Assembly (NCBI RefSeq): GCF_000500935.1
Contig: NC_022998.1
Location: forward strand, 682,001 to 746,000
Direction: 5' to 3'
DNA from: Spiroplasma apis B31
GTDB lineage: Bacteria; Bacillota_I; Bacilli_A; Mycoplasmatales; Mycoplasmataceae
Length of the DNA: 64,000 bases
Numbering within the stretch: the first letter of the stretch is position 1; each line of letters begins with the position of its first letter. Below, one piece after another: positions 50,088 through 63,375 of the stretch. Under the pieces are notes generated by a model. It made no database searches. It had not been told where the DNA came from and saw nothing but the letters and a program-made list of their open reading frames with translations. The position numbers were made by a program, and so were the translations under genes.

Positions 50088-50950
50088 CTAAATAAGCATA
50101 TGCTGGGGGCTCTTGTGTTTAATCATTATTCTTTCATAATTGTAAAATTCTATATAATTGTCGATTGCTAATTTCAACTTGAGAAACTCATCCTGCTTTA
50201 GTTTTATTTTTCACTCTTCTTTTAATGATGAAAAAAAGGTTTCACACATCCCATTATCAATAGAATTACCTGGTCTAGATAATGATATTATAATATTATT
50301 TTTTTTAGCATAACGCTTTGCAAATATAGATGTATATTGATTTCCGTTATCAGAATGGATAATAAGTTTCTTAGATAGATCTTGTCTATGAAGCGAAGCT
50401 TTCTCAAGTGTTTTTCTGTAAATATCTATGTCATTTTTTAAAGATACCTCATGACCTACTATGAATCCAGTGTTTGCGTCTTTCAAAACACTTAAATATG
50501 CAAATTTTTTATTGAAAGGTATATATGTAATATCTGTAACTCAAAGCTCATTTTTTGAATACAAAGATCGATTTCTATTAACATGATTAGGACCATAAGT
50601 TATTTTTTTGACTTCTTTTGGTTTTCTATACATCTTTTTAATTCTTATAACTGAATATAAATTGAATAATTTTATTATTCTAGCAACTTTAGATTGACTT
50701 ACTACTATGCCTTAATTATTTAAAATTATTTTTATTCTGGGTGCACCATAAATTCCATTGTTTATTATAAATAAATTCTTTATTTTATATGCTAAGTCCA
50801 TATCTATTTTTGTTTCATAATCCGGTTTATTTTTACCACATCAGCGATAACAACTTGCTCTTGTGACATTAAATAATTTACATAAAGAAAGAACCGTGTA
50901 TTTTCTATTATATTTATCTATAGTTTTGTAATACTTTATGATTTTTTTTT
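50088..50950 (-). pseudogene. IS3 OrfB with nonsense and frameshift
   Basis: DDE domain (IIHSDNGNQYTSIFAKRY, NSIDNGMCETFFSSLKEE) is in one frame. However, Gln CAA has become TAA at 50712-50714, and a one-base deletion near 50110 shortens the C-terminus to HKSPQHMLI. Confidence 0.85.
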
Positions 50951-51289
50951 TGAATCCTCCATCAGTTCATTGAACTTTTTTAAGACCTCATTCTCCATTT
51001 CTAATCATTTCAATTTTTTATTAAGTTCTGCAATATTCTTATCTTTTGGATCTTTTGGATTGATTATAATCTTTCCGTTGTGCTTATTGTTTTTTCCAGT
51101 TTTTGAAATAAGCGACTCATCACCAAAAACTTCTCAATCTACACACATTCTTCTAACTGTTGAATATGAAATATTGTGCATTTTTGATAAGTCTTTATAA
51201 GATAAATTTTGATCAAAATGCTTGATAATCAACTCTTTTTTAGTCTCAAAAATTAGAATGTTTGATTTGTTTCATTTTAAATTAGCTAT
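50936..51289 (-). pseudogene. IS3 OrfA, start codon lost
   Basis: Same 117 codons as copy 1, but the first codon is ATA instead of ATG (51287-51289). The rest is open (NISYSTVRRMCVDWEVFGDE) and ends in an A10 slippery run. Confidence 0.8.
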
Positions 51290-51446
51290 ATGAAAAATTC
51301 TCCTTGTATAATTTTATGTTTTTTAACATAATGTACACTTAGAGAATCATATTCATTCGCTAGTTAGAGCTGTTAAATTAAACAAAAAAAATAGAGTCCT
51401 AGCGTTGCTAGTGTTCTATTTAACTTAATTTAAGTATAACATAGTT

Positions 51447-51698
51447 TTAAAACTCAAAGTCAATCTCATTATCTTTTAAAACTTTTTGGAGCTGATTGTT
51501 TTTTTGCTTTCGCTCTTTTAACTTGTTTTCTAACTCTTTAAACTTGTTTTCTAGCTCTTTGAACTTGTTTTCTAGCTCTTTAAACTTGTTTTCTAGCTCT
51601 TTAAACTTGTTTTCTTGATCAAGTAAAAAATTATTTATTTTTTCTTCTAAAATTTTATTATTTTTCTCAATTTCTGCACTACATTTTGACATCTCCAA
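51447..51698 (-). CDS. coiled-coil protein with ENKFKEL heptads
   Basis: 83 aa, almost entirely a coiled coil: about five copies of the exact heptad ENKFKEL in the middle, then ERKQKNNQLQKVL. Start TTG 51698 or ATG 51692; AAGGAG precedes. Comparable heptad proteins occur in Spiroplasma genomes near mobile DNA. Function unknown. Confidence 0.65.
   Translation of the reverse strand: MEMSKCSAEIEKNNKILEEKINNFLLDQENKFKELENKFKELENKFKELENKFKELENKLKERKQKNNQLQKVLKDNEIDFEF
51512..51614. repeat. 21-bp tandem repeats (~5 units)
   Basis: Unit like CTCTTTAAACTTGTTTTCTAG repeated head to tail inside the coiled-coil gene; length likely varies by slippage. Confidence 0.85.
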
Positions 51699-51707
51699 TT
51701 TAACTCC

Positions 51708-51914
51708 TTAATTCATCTTAGATATCTTTATTATACTTATATAATTACTTATTTCAAAATTTAGATTTTTTAACAATTTTTTTAATCTTTTAGGGAAGTT
51801 AACTTTGTGCGAAACAACAATAATAATCTCATTATTTTCATTTCCAACATTAATCATAATACTTATCATTTTTTTATCTCATTCTAACTTATCAACGATA
51901 TTTTGTTCACTCAT
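51708..51914 (-). CDS. possible 68-aa protein upstream of coiled-coil gene
   Basis: From ATG 51914 (SEQNIVDKLEWDKKMISIMI, ending SIIKISKMN). Alpha/beta composition; one TGA Trp. Its stop abuts the ribosome binding site of the coiled-coil gene. It may be the 3' part of a gene cut by the IS beginning at 51960. Confidence 0.45.
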
Positions 51915-51959
51915 ATTCAGGATAAGTTTTTTTATGCTTTCTAATATTTTCTTCTAATT

Positions 51960-53299
51960 AAAGGGTCATCCCAAACTACAATTATTTTAATAAATTACTC
52001 TTGTACATTTCTATAGTTGCAATTTTTAATTTATTTACTATTCTATTGTTTGAATAATTTCAAATACAATTTTCCATTTAAGTTAAAAAATATTTTTTTG
52101 TTTGAAAATTTATATCCTTTAAGATAATTCTGTTTGAAACTATTAAAGAATGTTTCTACTATTGCGTTTTGTCATAAAGCATAACCATCCGTCATACTTT
52201 GTTTTATTTTATTTGCTTTACAAAAATTCATCATATTAATACTTCTAAACTGGGCTCCTCTATCTGTATGGATAATTGAATTATTTATATTGTAGTTATC
52301 TTTTAATATATATAGTGATTTTATAATTCTTTTGTAGTTTGATTACTTGAAAATAAGTTTTTAACGGTAATCTAGAATAAACATCAATATATGCAAACAT
52401 ATATAATTTAGAGTTACTAAACTTAAATTCTGGTATATCTAAACATATTTTTCCAATGGTCTTGAAGCAAAAAAATCTACTTTACCAGTAATTGGATTTT
52501 TCAATAAATTTGGAGCAGTATTTACAGGTTCTTTTTTGCCACTAACATAAGATTTTCACTTTCTACTTTTTTCACAATTATCAGGAAAAAGTCCTTGACT
52601 TTTCATTGAACTTAAAACTGTTTTTCTACCAATACCGAATTTTAAAGCTATTTTTTTATGCCCTCATTTACGGTGTGTACCATATTTTAAGTCACAATCA
52701 TTAAATACTAGTTTTATGAATAAATCATAAGAAGTATTTCTTTTTGTTTTATAATCTTTTGAACCATTATTAACTCAACTTTTATAAGTTTTAAAGTTAA
52801 TGTTTAATAGATTTAATAATCATGAAAGTTTTATATTTTTTTGCAAGTATTTACTTATTATTTTATAAAATTCAATGTTTATTTTTTGTTTTTTAAATCC
52901 TTTACCAGAGATGCTGTGAACTTTTCCATAATTTCGACCTTATTAATTAACTCTCTATTTACCTTATTTTTATTTTGCATCTCTTTTCTTAAAAAATTTA
53001 ACTCTTGTTTTATGTTTTCGAAGTTTTTTTGTTTATCAATACTGGATTTTCTGCCTTTTTTTTGACAAATAAACCAGAGAACCCACTAGTTATATACCTA
53101 TTCTGTCATTGATAAATAGTACATGGTTGTTTAATATTATATTTTTCTGCTATTTTTTTGCACTTATATCAGATGATAAAAACTCATTTACTATTTTCAT
53201 TTTTTCATCTGCAGTAAATAGTTTTGTTTTAGCCATAAAAAAGAACCCTCTTATAAAAATTATATACATAATTTTTGTGTAGTTTGGGGTGACCCTTTT
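51960..53299 (-). mobile_element. IS element with ~20-bp inverted ends, degraded
   Basis: 1.34 kb bounded by AAAGGGTCATCCCAAACTAC on the left and GTAGTTTGGGGTGACCCTTT on the right (one mismatch). On the minus strand OrfA starts at ATG 53236 (AKTKLFTADEKMKIVNEFL). The DDE part still reads IIHTDRGAQFRSINMMNFCK and YALWQNAIVETFFNSFKQN, the IS3-family integrase pattern. Many frameshifts. A different subtype from the element at 40.8 and 50.0 kb. Confidence 0.85.
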
Positions 53300-54633: not shown

Positions 54634-54658
54634 TAAAAAAGTTACCTTAGGTAACTTT
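54634..54658 (-). terminator. Terminator overlapping methyltransferase stop
   Basis: AAAGTTACC-TAA-GGTAACTTT with T6 on the minus strand; the loop is the stop codon itself. Confidence 0.85.
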
Positions 54659-55885
54659 ACACATTATAACTATATATTCTTTAGACATAGTTGGAATAAC
54701 ACCAACCTTGTTATTTGAGTTTGAAGCTAAACTAGGCATTCTCTTATTCAAAATATCTCTTATTATTGTTTTTTTATGTTTAAAACCATTTTTCTCAAAC
54801 ATTCTTACCGTTATATCATCCAATGGTATTTCTATATTTCTCACTCTTCTGTTCCCAACAACATATACGACTACTCCACCTTTTTTTACTTTTTTAGAAA
54901 CCATTTTTATAGAATTATAATAATCTACAAAAAAATAAATTACTTCTAAATATCTTTTAGATTTGAAATGTTTTTCCTTTTCTTTTATCTCGTTTATTGT
55001 TTCGTCGAGTTCTTTAATATCAAAAACATAATTTTTATCCTCTGTATTTTTTGTGCCACCCATAAGCAAGTTATCTAACTTATTAGCATTTTCAATATTT
55101 AACCATTCATTTGATAATCTCGAGAATTGACCATAAGCTACAGTGGTTCTACTATCTCCGTAAGGTGGAGATGTAACAACCAGTTCAATTGAATTGTCTG
55201 GAATATCTTGTTCACTAATGTTTAAAACCGATTTATTAAACAACTTTATCATACTTCTTTTTTTGAAGTTTGAATATTCTTCTATCATAAATAAATTGTT
55301 TTTTAGTATATTGAAAAAGCAATCAAAAACGTTAGGGTTATGAAGATTTCTTTTTTCTTTTTGAATTCTATAAAGCTTGAATTCTCCATTTCTTGTCATA
55401 GAACAAGCCCTTATAGTTTCTGAAAAACAAACCTTGAAAAAGTTTTTATTTTCCAAACTAACTTCTTTATCTATATAACTTTTTATTTTTGAAAGATCTT
55501 CTATAGTGTTTTTCTTAAATCATGTATCAATTATATTAAATGTAAACATCTTGAAATCAATTTGTAAAAAATCAAAATCAATACATTTTTGTATCTCTGA
55601 CTTAAGTAAGTCTATATTATATGTGTCTGTTTTAACTTTTGCAATCAATACAGCCAAAGGATTTAAATCTACTCCATATATTTTATCTACGCATTGCATT
55701 TGTGCTTCTACAATAGAAGTTCCAGAGCCCATATAAGGGTCCAAAAAACTTTTAATATCTTCATTTTCCTTTAGTATGGCTCTTATAATTCTCGGCATAA
55801 GCATAGCTGGATAAGGATGTATCCCGTGAACTAATTCTTTCATACTAAAATCTTTAAAATTTCAATTTTTATCATATATTTTCAT
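54647..55885 (-). CDS. DNA methyltransferase (N4/N6 amino)
   Basis: 412-aa SAM-dependent enzyme. AdoMet motif FLDPYMGSGTSIVEA at about residue 55 precedes the catalytic motif VVTSPPYGDSRTT at about 235, and YGQFSRLSNEWLN follows. SPPY marks an amino-methyltransferase acting on adenine N6 or cytosine N4. Starts at ATG 55885 with a weak ribosome site. No intact endonuclease is adjacent, so it is probably an orphan or the survivor of a restriction-modification system. Target site unknown. Confidence 0.87.
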
Positions 55886-56933: not shown

Positions 56934-59567
56934 TTATAATTTTATTTTGAAAATGCTTAATGTATTATTTTCTCCATCCTGTGTAACGGGTCTTAATCCA
57001 ATTTTAAGCATATTTTCATTAAATGGCAGATTTGGTATATATGCTGCCTTGATTTTTGACTCACCAACACGATATCATTTATTGACTAGATTATAATAGA
57101 CTTCGAAATAATCATAATTATTATTGTCTGTCTCTCATTCTAATCGAACATTTGTATTTCCATTTCCTCTTGTTATGATAGCTTCTGAACTTAACTTTTT
57201 AACTTTAGCACCTTTATAAGGATTAGTAGTTTTGCTGATATTAAACTCACCAACATTAAACTTAAATTGTGTATTATCATTTACATTAATTTTAAGTCCA
57301 ATTTTTGCTAGAGTTTTTTCTTTTGATGTTGCAATATTTTTAATTGTAATTCTTGATCAACCATCTTCTAGATTTTCGATAACTGGTTTATGAGATTCAA
57401 TTATCTCTCTTTTCCCATCATTAGTAAAAGTAGTAAGTACATTTATATTTTTAATTACATCATTCAAGACTTTGTTATCATGACTTGCTTTCACTATAAA
57501 ACTTATGTCATAAGAATCTTTTGAAAGGTTGCTACCCATTATATTCCAATCATAAATAGAATTTGCTTTTCAAGTCCCTTCAGTAATTGAACCATCTAGT
57601 TTTAATTGTCCTCCAAAAGCGAGTGAGTTACCTTTTTGATAAATATCATAGTAATCATAAAAACCATTCAAACCACCGGTAATAGGTAGTGAAGATAAAT
57701 TATTTTGATTATTTTGTTTCATATCAAAATTGTATGTAGGGTTTAAATCTGTGAATCTTCTATTTGTTCATGGATAATTGCTAGTTTTTGTTAATAACTT
57801 ACCTTCTTTGTTTCTATTTAAGAAAGTTATACCATTACCAAGTGAAAAGTTCGATTTTATACCACCTTTATCTGCTAAGTTTTCATCATTGATTGTTGTA
57901 AATTCTTGAATAATGTTACCAATCCCGAAACTATTAGAAATTAATCCGTTATTTTCTTTATAATCATAAACTTTATAAATTGGATTATTATCATCAACTT
58001 TTTCATTCCCTGTGTCAATTCTTGGATCGGCTTTAATCATATTGGAAACATTATTACGGTAATTAGCGTTTAAACCTTTGTCTTTTGACGATAATGAAGA
58101 GTTTAAACCTGAGAACATATAATTTTCATATAAATTAGCTACTTGTTGAGCATATAAGAACGAGTTTAATCTTTGTTGATAATTTGTCAAATCAACATTT
58201 TTGTTTGCTATTTGGAATGCTTGACTACCAAACTCCCCTGAACCAGCACCTGAGAATGAAGAAAAAGATTGATAAATATTTTTGTTGTATTCATTTTCAT
58301 CTGGATTCGTACTTGCTTTACCATAAACTAAATTTCTAAAATCGTAGTTACCAATAAAACCATAGTTTGCTGATAGTTCAATTAGATTATGAACTTTATT
58401 AGGATTTATTTTGTTATCAGTTAAGTAACGATTATTTGTATCTGGACTAACTCTAAAATCTAATTGCGCAATGTCTGCGTATTCAGCAGTTTTGACATAG
58501 TCGCCATAAACAGGTGTTCCATTAACTTGGTCATAAGTTGCACTATCTTTATAATATGCTAACTTTAAGTTTTTCTTTTTTTCATCGTTACTATTTTTAG
58601 TTTTATCTCTATATTGTTTTACAACATCAAAAGCATAATTTGAAGAAGTTACTGTACCATGTGGTCAACCCCCATTTGCTTCATCATTAAAGAACCAACC
58701 ATCAAAGCCATAAGTTATAGCCATATCAATTAAAACATCAACAATTTTATATGTACCATCAGAGTTTTTTTCTAAAAAGTCCGCGACGTCATTTCTTGAA
58801 AGACCACCATATCCAGATAAGAAAATTAGTCCAAATACAGGCGTTCCATTGATATGTCCAGCGTCTATCACATCTGCAGCAGGTGGCGAGATGTTACCGT
58901 GTTGACCTCAATCAAATAAATAGTCTCTATATTGATAATTTGAAATAGTTTTTTCAAATGTGTTTCTGGTTCCAACGTTAGTTGCTTGATATGAACCATT
59001 TACTCTCGAATGATCTCTAATGTCTCCGAATGAGATTCTTTCATCTTGTGTCTCTACTGACTTTAAAGCTGTTTTGGTACGTTTTTGTAATTTTTCAGTT
59101 GACATACCGTATTTTAAATCAATATCCTTATTATTGTTTCATTCCAAGATGGTATTAGCTCTTAGTCCTTTTCTTGCTTTTGAAGTAATTCCAAACTCCG
59201 CTCAAGTATTACCTGATGAGTATATTTTATTTATAGGTACTCCTGTAACCGCTTGTTTTGTTAATGAAGACGATTCTTTGAAATTTGTGTCAAGCACATC
59301 GTAATCAAAATAACTACCTTTGAAATTAGGTTCTACAATTTCATTTGATTCCTCAAAATTGAAGTCTGATTCATTCTTAAGTAAATAATCAACACTAACT
59401 GTAGGTACATTAATGTCGTTTCCCCTTGAATCTTTTTCTCAATCAAAGTCCTTCAAAGAAGAAAGGAACTTGTTTGATGATAGTTCACCAATATTGCACG
59501 ATACTACAAATAGAGTGGTTGGTAGTACGATAGATAAGGATAACATAAAGTTTATTAATTTTTTCAT
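56934..59567 (-). CDS. GH85 endo-beta-N-acetylglucosaminidase lipoprotein
   Basis: 877-aa surface lipoprotein. Signal peptide KKLINFMLSLSIVLPTTLFV with lipobox VVSC (Cys24). The GH85 domain spans about 150-550: YLFDWGQHGNISPPAADV, HINGTPVFGLIFLSGYGG, and the catalytic YGFDGWFFNDEANGGW, giving the Asn294-x-Glu296 pair used in this family. C-terminal ~250 residues are beta-rich carbohydrate-binding or Fn3-like modules. The family cuts the chitobiose core of N-glycans, so host glycoproteins are the likely substrate. Last gene of the 63.1-56.9 kb operon; its start follows the previous stop by one base. Confidence 0.88.
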
Positions 59568-59568
59568 T

Positions 59569-60690
59569 TTAGTTTTCCTTTCTATTCAAACTTTCATACT
59601 TCTCAGTTGATTTTATTGCAAAGTTTAAAAGCTTATTTGAGAGTCTTAATACCGGATTACTAAATAAAACTTGAGTATCATTTAGATTACTTGAGTTGAA
59701 TATAGGGTGAACATAAAAATCAAATGAGAAATAGTATCAAGTATTTTCTAAATCTTCTTCTTCAATTGGTGCTCAAAATTCTATATACCCTAGAAACATA
59801 TCAAAGTTCTTAGCACAAAACAATAAATTTAACATCCTTAAATCTAACAACGGTAATTTTGCTGTTAAGTCTTTTTGACTATTGTAGCAAGCATTATACA
59901 TCATTTGAGCATAAATTTGAACTAAGTAACAAGCTGCAATTGATTGCATAACGTGTTGATCACTTAGGAAATATTTAAGATATATAAACGCTCTTCATTG
60001 TAAAAAAGATAAATCGTCATTTTTATAATTGTTGACATTAAGTTTAAATTTTAAAGTTTTATTATCCTTAATCGCTTCAATATTAATATATGCCGAACCT
60101 TCTATATCACTACCCTTGAAATAAATTGCACCATTTTCATCGATTGGGTCATTCTCATTTACTAAACTAATTGGTAAATCTAAACTGGATGAACCTTCAG
60201 AAGTTATATTAACTTTAAAAATATATCCCTTATCTTTAAGATATTTGTAATTATATATTTGAATGAATTCTACTTCTCCTAAGGTTGATGTAGCAACTAA
60301 TGATCCATTTACTGGAATTTCAGGAGAGTTTCTATAAGGAAACTCTAAATCAACGAATATTTTGGTTTCGTAAATATCATTATCCAGATCTTTTTGAGGT
60401 AACGGTTGCAATTGAGATTTTAAAGAGTTTATGTTTCCCTTTTTCCATTTTCTTGCTTCTGCATAAACGTTATTATTAAACTCTTTGAAATACTTAGCAA
60501 GAGTTGTGGCATTTTGCAGTAACAAGTCTTGTCAATTATTCATATATTTATAATCAACCTTTGTTTCTCTAAAATTTAGAATATCATCTATTTTTAATTC
60601 ATTATAATTAGAAATAGAGCAAGAAATTGATGAACTAGTAATTGATATCGGTAAGAATGTAGATAGTATAGTTAGAATTAATTTTTTCAT
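59569..60690 (-). CDS. lipoprotein of the glycan operon
   Basis: 373 aa. Signal peptide KKLILTILSTFLPISITS with lipobox SISC. The mature protein has aromatic-rich segments (WRAFIYLKYFL, FLGYIEFWAPIEEEDLENTW) and no family I recognise. Could be a binding partner of the endoglycosidase or the transporter. RBS GGAG before ATG 60690; start overlaps the permease end by 13 bases. Confidence 0.8.
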
Positions 60691-61586
60691 GTTAGTCTCC
60701 TTTCTTTAAGATACAAAGTAGTTCAATACAGACCAATGATTGTTGCAAACTCAAAGATAATAATTGAGAAAGTAATCAAGTAATTTGTTGTAAACAGATG
60801 AGTCGTTAAGTTAGTGATTACTAGATTAATCAACCCACTATCAACTTGTATATCGATATAAAATAAATAGATCAATCAAGTTAAATATTTATTTGGAATC
60901 AAATATCCAAAATACATTATTTTGTTTGTAAAAGTTGCATCGTTTGGACTGACTATATGTTCGCTAAATATTAGTATCAAACATATTATCAAAATATTGA
61001 TAAGTTGTGCTAAAGCAGTTTGCTTTATCAAAGTTCCAACGAAATATCCATAAATAAAGCTAAATATAATAGATAAAAGAAGCACAAATATAATTCCCAG
61101 TGTTCTTCTAAAAGTTGATAAAAAATTAACTGTATCTTGATTAACAAGTTCCTTATAATAGTTAAGATTCAATGCATTTAAAAATGATTTATTTTGAAGA
61201 AATATATCTACAGTTGAGCAAAGTATCATAAAGATAAATAAAGATAAAATATTTAAAATAATAAAAACCAACAATATAGAAAGTATCATATATATCTTTT
61301 TTAGTTTAAATATTGAAAGATATTTGTTAAATACTGAATTATTTCAATCAGAAATCATTGAAGTAATGAAAAAGATCGAGAAAATAGATGGTAATGTTAG
61401 TTTGACTACCATAATTGCAGGATTTACTACTTTTAAGTCAAAATTAGATGTATAAAAATAAGCAAACAAATAAACAAGAAATGGTATTAGTATCATGTAC
61501 ACATAAAGTTTAAAAGATTTAATTGAGGAACAAAAAGTAAATAGAATAGTTCTAGAAAAACTGTTTTTTGAAGTTAAATTATTCAT
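60678..61586 (-). CDS. ABC transporter permease (second)
   Basis: 302 aa with about six hydrophobic segments (YVYMILIPFLVYLFAYFY, LSILLVFIILNILSLFIFMI, LGIIFVLLLSIIFSFIYGYF, LINILIICLILIF). ABC-2-type layout with a large loop after segment 2. ATG 61586 overlaps the preceding stop (TAATG). Confidence 0.8.
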
Positions 61587-62446
61587 TAATTTTTCACCCC
61601 TCAACTAAATTTATATTTAATATATAGACACATAGATATTAGAACTAAAACTGATATGAACAAAGGTATGTATATATTGTTAAAAGATACAAATAAACCA
61701 CTTATATTATTTGTAGATAATATTTGTTGTATTCCAAAACTATCTATGAATTGGTACGATGTGATTAGATATATTATTCATACACAATATTTCAAAGGGT
61801 TTAAATATTCTAAAACAGCAATAAACTTTATCTTAGATGTGATATAAGGAATAATTGTTAAATCACAAAGTAATATAATGATAAATAGTGCTGCTGTATT
61901 GATTGCTAAGATGATATATTTATTGTTTGAAATATTTGAAATTGATATAAATATCATTAAAGAAACAATTGACATCAAAAAACTTGATAGTAGAAAAAAT
62001 ATTCAAATATATCAAGTTGCATTAATCAGCATAGAGAAGTCAATTGGAAACATTGGTATAAATCTAGTTGTTATTGCAGCTAGACTTGCAGAAAAGACAA
62101 TTGAAATAAAAGAAAAGATAATAGCATTGACAAAAAGAACAAGCATTATGTCTAATGACGATATTCCAGACCCTTTTATTTTTTTCAAGAAGTTAGTTGA
62201 CTTTCATTCTGTAACAACAAGAGAAAGATAAAATCCAACCATTATGCTTCCTATTGATAAAAATCCAAATAACTGAGGTGTATAAATAACATTCACAATC
62301 ATTTTTCCTCAAACTCAATAAAGTAAAAATGATAATACCATCGGGATCAAAATTGAAACAACATAAATTTTTGGGTCTTTGAAAAGAATCTTTGTTACTA
62401 AGAAAAGTAACCTATTTAAATTTGTAAATTTAATTTTTGATTTCAT
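61586..62446 (-). CDS. ABC transporter permease (first)
   Basis: 286 aa with six or seven hydrophobic segments (YVVSILIPMVLSFLLYW, LFGFLSIGSIMVGFYLSLVV, LDIMLVLFVNAIIFSFISIV, YIILAINTAALFIIILL). Resembles ABC-2-type exporter permeases. ATG 62446 overlaps the ATPase gene by 17 bases. Pairs with the second permease as a likely heterodimer. Confidence 0.8.
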
Positions 62447-63134
62447 TTTGTACCTTCGAATTTCTAAAATGATTTTCTAAAAAGTTTTTTACTGTTTTGT
62501 GCTCGTCAATAACCTTATTTAATTTTATATCTTCGTAAATGCTCCCATCCTTCATAACAATCAATCTATCGCACAAGGTTTCAATTTCGTCAGGTATATG
62601 AGAAACTATTAATAAAGTTTTCTCTTTACTTTCTTTCATCTTTTCAAAAAATGAAAGAAGTTTTAAATGTATTCTCAAATCAAGACCAGTTATAAGTTCA
62701 TCTATAACAACCAATGATGGATCGTTAATAATTGCTAAAAAGCAATTTAACCTTTGTCTTTGACCTAGTGAAAGTTTATTAATATCGCGTTTATAGATTT
62801 CTTCAATTTCAAAGATTTCAAAAATGTCTGCAACATACTTATCCTCTGATCATTTTTGCCCTTTAAAAAACTTTATTAAATCTAAAGGTCTTGTTTTTGT
62901 CGGCCAGTTACCTTCCTGAAACTGTATACCGATTATGTCGTCTATATTTTTAGACATTTTTACACTACCGCTTGAAGGTTTTTGGATTCCGGAAATAATT
63001 TCTACAAGGGTTGACTTACCACTACCGTTTGCGCCAATTATCGCTACATTTTCACCTTTAGAAATATTTAATGATACATCATTCAAGGCAACCTTATTTC
63101 CGTATTTTTTTGTAATATTTTTAATTTCAATCAA
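62430..63134 (-). CDS. ABC transporter ATP-binding protein
   Basis: 234-aa ATPase: Walker A GANGSGKS (about 36-43), Q-loop GIQFQEGNWP, signature LSLGQRQR, Walker B LVVIDELITGLD, switch HIPDEIE. Starts at TTG 63134 with GGGAGG upstream. First gene of the operon with two permeases and two lipoproteins. The Q at FQEG and the short C-terminus fit export-type ABC-2 ATPases; the transported substrate is unknown. Confidence 0.9.
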
Positions 63135-63334: not shown

Positions 63335-63375
63335 ACAAAAAAATCGCCTTGAATTATAAAAATTCTGGCGATTTA
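63335..63375 (-). terminator. Terminator of the right-edge gene
   Basis: AAATCGCC pairs with GGCGATTT with inner AGAATT/AATTC pairing; T7 follows on the minus strand. Confidence 0.8.

What the first reader, a model, noticed from the sequence alone, without database searches (positions are those of the whole stretch)
56934..63134. GH85 endoglycosidase lipoprotein coupled to an ABC system in one overlapping operon
ATPase, two permeases, a lipoprotein and a GH85 lipoprotein overlap or nearly touch. The GH85 Asn-x-Glu pair is intact at 294/296. A surface enzyme that releases host N-glycans beside a dedicated transporter would be a host-interaction or feeding system. The permeases look like export types, so direction of transport is unclear.
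Basis: partly seen in the sequence, partly recalled or inferred. Interest (0 to 1): 0.7.

Follow-up and report, generated by a model that had tools for sequence, protein, structure and literature searches.

The report
Sugar-cutting enzyme wired to ABC exporter
Many Spiroplasma, wall-less bacteria that live in insects, carry a surface enzyme that should clip sugar chains off host proteins, and its gene is nearly always inherited together with its own ATP-driven export pump, a pairing that looks more like a way of dealing with the host than a way of feeding.

Summary
With TGA read as Trp, five overlapping or abutting minus-strand genes (63134 to 56934) encode an ABC ATPase, two six-segment permeases, an unclassified lipoprotein and a GH85 endo-beta-N-acetylglucosaminidase lipoprotein with Asn294/Glu296 intact. 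Genome length identifies Spiroplasma apis B31.

In 60 family genomes, 53 of 58 GH85 hits lie within 5 kb of this permease family (about 3.7 expected). Linked ATPases and linked permeases each form one clade, linked GH85s form one clade (with one unlinked row inside), and no stand-alone copy of the linked exporter clade was found. Only 1 of 76 other bacterial GH85 loci has even a weak permease hit.

Feeding is not supported. The permeases are ABC-2 (export) type, the unit has no type I permease, and S. apis has no GH38, GH92, GH125, GH130 or GH20. GH85 genes in sugar-import or alpha-mannosidase loci exist in relatives but fall outside the linked clade.

Most likely: an endoglycosidase-exporter unit that strips N-glycans from host glycoproteins at the cell surface, with ATP work directed outward, loosely like the mycoplasma MIB-MIP-ATPase system. 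The exported substrate and the lipoprotein's role are unknown.

The parts
62430..63134 (-). ABC ATPase, 234 aa, Walker A (residue 34), signature (121), Walker B (142) and H-loop (177) motifs present
   Evidence: PF00005 E 8.1e-23; motif names recalled
61586..62446 (-). Permease B, 286 aa, six hydrophobic segments, first copy of the duplicated permease
60678..61604 (-). Permease A, 308 aa, six hydrophobic segments, second copy
59569..60690 (-). Predicted lipoprotein, 373 aa, no Pfam family; relatives in the two-permease loci
   Evidence: model useless
56934..59567 (-). GH85 endo-beta-N-acetylglucosaminidase, predicted lipoprotein, 877 aa
58680..58688 (-). Codons of Asn294-Asp295-Glu296, the GH85 catalytic pair
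   Evidence: coordinates worked out from the start codon at 59567
63336..63374 (-). Terminator-like hairpin (8-bp stem AAATCGCC/GGCGATTT, 18-base loop, T run) that separates the unit from the gene upstream
   Evidence: read by eye; its loop is too long for the scan, which reported none

Best explanation
A dedicated endoglycosidase-exporter unit. Shown by sequence: GH85 is a predicted surface lipoprotein with an intact active site; the ATPase has its motifs; the permeases are ABC-2-like; enzyme and exporter are inherited as one unit. Inferred from known GH85 chemistry: the enzyme cuts between the two GlcNAc residues of N-glycans on host glycoproteins at the wall-less cell surface. Inferred from the transporter type and the missing catabolic enzymes: the ABC system spends ATP outward, either expelling a host-derived or membrane-inserted molecule or clearing or resetting the enzyme's target, and does not import the released glycan. 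The net role is host interaction (immune evasion or surface clearing) in arthropods. This follows the design logic of the mycoplasma MIB-MIP plus F1-like ATPase system without sharing its parts.
For: 53 of 58 GH85 hits within 5 kb of the permease family, about 3.7 expected. Linked permeases (87) and ATPases (53) each separate completely from stand-alone copies (39 and 38) with SH-aLRT 100. Linked GH85s form one clade of 57 rows. Active site kept: Asn 55 of 55, Glu 54 of 55. dN/dS 0-0.29 in the pairs tested. Export-type permeases. No GH38, GH92, GH125, GH130 or GH20 hit in S. apis. Precedent of a surface enzyme that needs an ATPase partner: MIB-MIP (PMC12994834).
Against: No experiment. Direction and cargo unknown. 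The export call rests on family-level matches: neither window permease reaches a Pfam family and the PDB hit is E = 0.017. The one-permease forms lack the lipoprotein, so its role is not universal. No host target is identified. Eight of 33 GH85 genomes do have GH38.
Confidence: 0.42

Rival explanations
1. Feeding: GH85 releases host N-glycans and the adjacent ABC imports them, with the 373-aa lipoprotein as solute-binding protein.
For: GH85 next to an importer is a known feeding layout (PMC5215778 abstract), and real importer loci with GH85 occur in another family of the order.
Against: Permeases are ABC-2-like, not BPD_transp_1. No GH92, GH125 or GH130 in 60 genomes, GH20 in 1 of 60, and GH38 unrelated to GH85. 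GH85s in importer or GH38 loci lie outside the linked clade. The one-permease forms have no recognised separate lipoprotein partner.
Confidence: 0.15
2. Self-protection pump: the ABC system removes host antimicrobial or other membrane-inserted molecules, in the manner of LanFEG plus LanI, and GH85 is a co-regulated companion that attacks glycoproteins independently.
For: ATPase, two permeases and a lipoprotein in one unit recall LanFEG/LanI (recalled); the lantibiotic-protection ATPase model is among the hits.
Against: That model scores 98.1 bits against a cut-off of 309.75. A merely co-regulated companion does not readily explain why no linked-clade exporter was seen without GH85.
Confidence: 0.2
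3. Coat building: the exporter delivers a lipid- or protein-borne acceptor to the surface and GH85 transglycosylates host oligomannose onto it.
For: Some GH85 enzymes transglycosylate well (recalled; glycosynthase papers appear in the listing). Export direction fits.
Against: No glycosyltransferase or acceptor gene was recognised in the unit; nothing here shows an acceptor.
Confidence: 0.08
4. The ABC system places or exports the GH85 protein itself, or the arrangement is only inherited synteny with no joint function.
For: The extracytoplasmic protein is always co-encoded with the exporter in the linked loci.
Against: GH85 has an ordinary N-terminal signal and lipobox-like Cys in most members. 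Gene order was rearranged into at least five forms while the partnership held, which frozen synteny does not explain.
Confidence: 0.12

Closest known systems
Endo-A (Arthrobacter) and Endo-D (pneumococcus), GH85 endo-beta-N-acetylglucosaminidases
   Same: Pfam family, aligned Asn-x-Glu, predicted fold over residues 105-877
   Different: Predicted lipoprotein in Mollicutes, about 15-20% identical, partnered with an ABC-2-like exporter
Pneumococcal EndoD-GH92-ABC_NG N-glycan system (PMC5215778, abstract)
   Same: GH85 working alongside an ABC transporter
   Different: That system has a solute-binding protein (NgtS) and GH92; here the permeases are export type and GH92 is absent
MIB-MIP with F1-like X0 ATPase in mycoplasmas (PMC12994834)
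   Same: Design logic: surface enzyme system encoded with, and needing, an ATP-driven membrane partner
   Different: Protease and antibody binder with an F-type ATPase, against a glycosidase with an ABC exporter; the paper found no homologue in its Spiroplasma branches
LanFEG/LanI lantibiotic immunity (recalled)
   Same: ATPase, two six-segment permeases and a lipoprotein
   Different: The lantibiotic-protection model does not reach its cut-off; partnered with a glycosidase

Membership tests
GH85 | Match to PF03644 above the curated cut-off | tested here: met
   79.1 bits against 22.2
GH85 | Catalytic Asn and Glu | tested here: met
   N294 and E296; 55 of 55 and 54 of 55 in relatives of at least 600 aa
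GH85 | GH85 fold | tested here: met
   Endo-A and Endo-D are the best structural matches, from a model of low mean confidence
GH85 | Release of N-glycans | not testable with these tools
   needs an assay
ABC-2 (type V) exporter | ABC-2 permease family match | tested here: inconclusive
   0 families for the window permeases; 4 of 16 aligned relatives hit ABC2_membrane_3; only PDB hit ABCG16, E 0.017
ABC-2 (type V) exporter | Six membrane segments per permease and an intact ABC ATPase | tested here: met
   six hydrophobic segments in each and the ATPase motifs
GH85 N-glycan import locus | Type I (BPD_transp_1) permeases | tested here: not met
   no such match in the five proteins, whereas L203 and L205 have it
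GH85 N-glycan import locus | Exo-mannosidases to use the glycan | tested here: not met
   no GH38, GH92, GH125 or GH130 hit in S. apis; other mannosidase families not tested
LanFEG/LanI immunity system | Lantibiotic-protection ATPase model cut-off | tested here: not met
   TIGR03740 98.1 bits against 309.75
MIB-MIP with F1-like X0 ATPase | F-type alpha/beta-like ATPase subunits in the cluster | tested here: not met
   The unit's ATPase is ABC (PF00005)
MIB-MIP with F1-like X0 ATPase | MIB and MIP homologues | not tested
   the paper reports none in its Spiroplasma branches

The most novel reading that the evidence does not exclude
Arthropod-associated mollicutes evolved, once, an ATP-driven surface deglycosylation machine: an endoglycosidase that works only with its own ABC exporter, the arthropod-host counterpart of the mycoplasma antibody-cleaving MIB-MIP-ATPase. 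Boldest form: the exporter presents an acceptor and the enzyme transglycosylates host oligomannose onto it, dressing the cell in host sugar.
Probability: 0.3. Interest if true: 0.85.

Novelty: new variant of a known kind. Interest (0 to 1): 0.62.

Why it matters
A surface enzyme and an export pump that are kept together across much of a bacterial family point to a joint function that annotation as 'endo-beta-N-acetylglucosaminidase' and 'ABC transporter' hides. It gives a concrete, testable candidate for how spiroplasmas handle host glycoproteins in their arthropod hosts, and it asks whether an ABC exporter can power or clear an extracellular hydrolase.

Tried and rejected
Feeding model: tested through five glycoside hydrolase families and permease type, and ranked lower. 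Lipoprotein long and short forms: whole-profile HHalign aligned only the N-terminus (E 3.8e-06, probability 87), C-terminal parts gave E 5.1e-05 at probability 67, and four basal loci have a larger, only weakly similar protein in the same position; homology is likely, not proven. Promoter scan: 63 found against 60.5 expected, uninformative. The genome-contig scan returned only three Spiroplasma loci, so most relatives are unnamed.

Results against my reading: L045 and L046 (both G030), L071 and L100 have GH85 without this ABC; in L203 and L205 GH85 sits in importer loci, and L204 is a 4.7-kb contig too short to judge. Eight of 33 GH85 genomes do have GH38. Trees are quick searches with SH-aLRT only; rows under 600 aa (GH85), under 230 aa or 90 bits (permease), or outside 200-300 aa or at or below 230 bits (ATPase) were left out, so broken loci are mostly not in the trees. 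Architecture counts are my reading of the map. The expectation of 3.7 assumes uniform placement on 1.2 Mb and does not correct for shared ancestry; the data are closer to one origin plus long retention than to 53 independent events. In the GH85 tree forms T1 and T2 need 2 and 3 changes, not 1. GH38 was compared only with presence of GH85, not with each linked form.

Literature: six searches listed no paper that, by title or start of abstract, describes this linkage; most subscription papers are not in that library. GH85 in Spiroplasma itself is in print: PMC9666726 (passages) names it a pathogenicity determinant by citing a staphylococcal enzyme, and PMC7187355 (passages) reports one upregulated in a S. 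poulsonii variant.

Full report
What is there. The window is read with the mycoplasma code; the genome is 1,160,554 bases in one contig, the length published for Spiroplasma apis B31 (PMC3886961, whole text). Five minus-strand genes run from 63134 to 56934: ATPase, permease B, permease A, a 373-aa lipoprotein and a GH85 lipoprotein, with overlaps of 17, 19 and 13 bases and then a 1-base gap. A hairpin with a T run lies at 63336-63374, upstream of the ATPase and its AGGGAGG ribosome site (read by eye), so the unit probably starts there. One transcript is likely but not shown.

The enzyme. The 877-aa protein is GH85 by Pfam, by match to Endo-A and Endo-D and by predicted fold. The model is weak overall (mean pLDDT 49), but its best 13 Foldseek hits are all endo-beta-N-acetylglucosaminidases. 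In 55 GH85 proteins of at least 600 aa from the family the Asn is invariant and the Glu is present in 54. Seven close pairs give dN/dS of 0.06-0.29 for GH85 and 0-0.25 for the ABC and lipoprotein genes (the window pair L065/L079 is near saturation).

The transporter. The ATPase keeps its motifs. The permeases are related to each other, with six hydrophobic segments each. Neither window permease reaches a Pfam family, but 4 of 16 aligned relatives hit ABC2_membrane_3 and the family profile's only PDB hit is the plant exporter ABCG16 at E = 0.017. Export type is thus the best reading, at family level.

The linkage. GH85 occurs in 33 of 60 genomes of the family. I fetched 56 regions covering all 58 hits. 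By my reading of the map: T1 ATPase-permease-GH85-permease 18 (ATPase displaced or missing in some, one locus broken), T2 GH85-ATPase-permease 17 (one broken), T3a ATPase-permease-permease-lipoprotein-GH85 5 (the window form), T3b lipoprotein-ATPase-permease-permease-GH85 10, T4 ATPase-permease-GH85 2, no such ABC 4. S. apis itself has three GH85 loci in three of these forms, 28-32% identical. Counted separately, 53 of 58 GH85 hits have a permease hit of about 100 bits or more within 5 kb, against about 3.7 expected.

One origin. In a tree of 72 GH85s the linked ones form one clade of 57 rows (SH-aLRT 100). T3a, T3b and T4 are each one clade; T1 and T2 need 2 and 3 changes, the latter because one unlinked and one broken row lie inside. 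The unlinked row (L071) is sister to a tandem duplicate in a linked locus (L059). Linked permeases (87) and linked ATPases (53) each separate completely from stand-alone ATPase-permease pairs (39 and 38). So no copy of the linked exporter was seen without GH85, among hits above the thresholds used. In another family of the same order 5 of 5 GH85 loci are linked (one broken); in a third, 0 of 3. Outside Mollicutes, 76 GH85 loci (the best kept by the scan) gave one weak permease hit, 19 bits.

Why not feeding. In the third family, L203 and L205 have GH85 beside BPD_transp_1 permeases and an ABC ATPase with TOBE or MalK-type domains, and in G030 the GH85 of L045 lies among GH38 alpha-mannosidases. 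That is what a feeding locus looks like in this group, and those enzymes fall outside the linked clade. The linked systems occur in genomes with little of the machinery to use the glycan: GH92, GH125 and GH130 in 0 of 60, GH20 in 1 of 60 (weak), GH38 in 15 of 60 with no relation to GH85 (8 of 33 with GH85, 7 of 27 without; p = 1.0). In pneumococcus, by contrast, EndoD works with GH92 and a solute-binding importer (PMC5215778, abstract).

How it may work. My best reading is surface deglycosylation of host glycoproteins with outward ATP work. The closest precedent in logic is MIB-MIP, whose protection of Mycoplasma mycoides from agglutination by antibodies needs a partner ATPase by an unknown mechanism (PMC12994834: abstract, Discussion part 1 and passages). 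That paper found no homologue in its Spiroplasma branches. The lipoprotein goes with the two-permease forms: relatives in 15 regions, a shorter likely relative in 13 more; its role is unknown. What the exporter moves is the central open question.

Verdict. Real, conserved, probably of single origin and, as far as my searches show, undescribed as a unit; the enzyme and the transporter type are each known. Confidence in the unit is high, in the mechanism moderate to low.

Noticed in passing
L057/L101 (S. poulsonii MSRO_BK), L103 (S. ixodetis SHM), L208: The GH85-ABC locus is in pieces in these genomes, while the related L210 is intact; the two named species are, from recall, inherited symbionts.
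   Followed up: partly
L183-L202, L211-L229: A stand-alone ATPase-permease pair, sister to the GH85-linked exporters, is widespread in the family (39 loci) and has no GH85. Function unknown.
   Followed up: partly
L203, L205 (another family of the order): Much larger GH85 proteins (1181 and 1286 aa) beside type I ABC importer genes, which look like real glycan-feeding loci.
   Followed up: partly
L059: Two linked GH85 genes flank one ATPase-permease pair in the same genome region.
   Followed up: no
54647-55885: A 412-aa DNA methylase-like gene (N6_N4_Mtase) lies downstream of the unit on the same strand.
   Followed up: no
50088-52846: Short frames that read like broken transposase genes, by eye from the translations.
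   Followed up: no
L065:15451-16482 (beyond the window end): A formate/nitrite transporter gene upstream of the unit (PF01226), preceded by a 769-aa predicted lipoprotein without a Pfam family.
   Followed up: no
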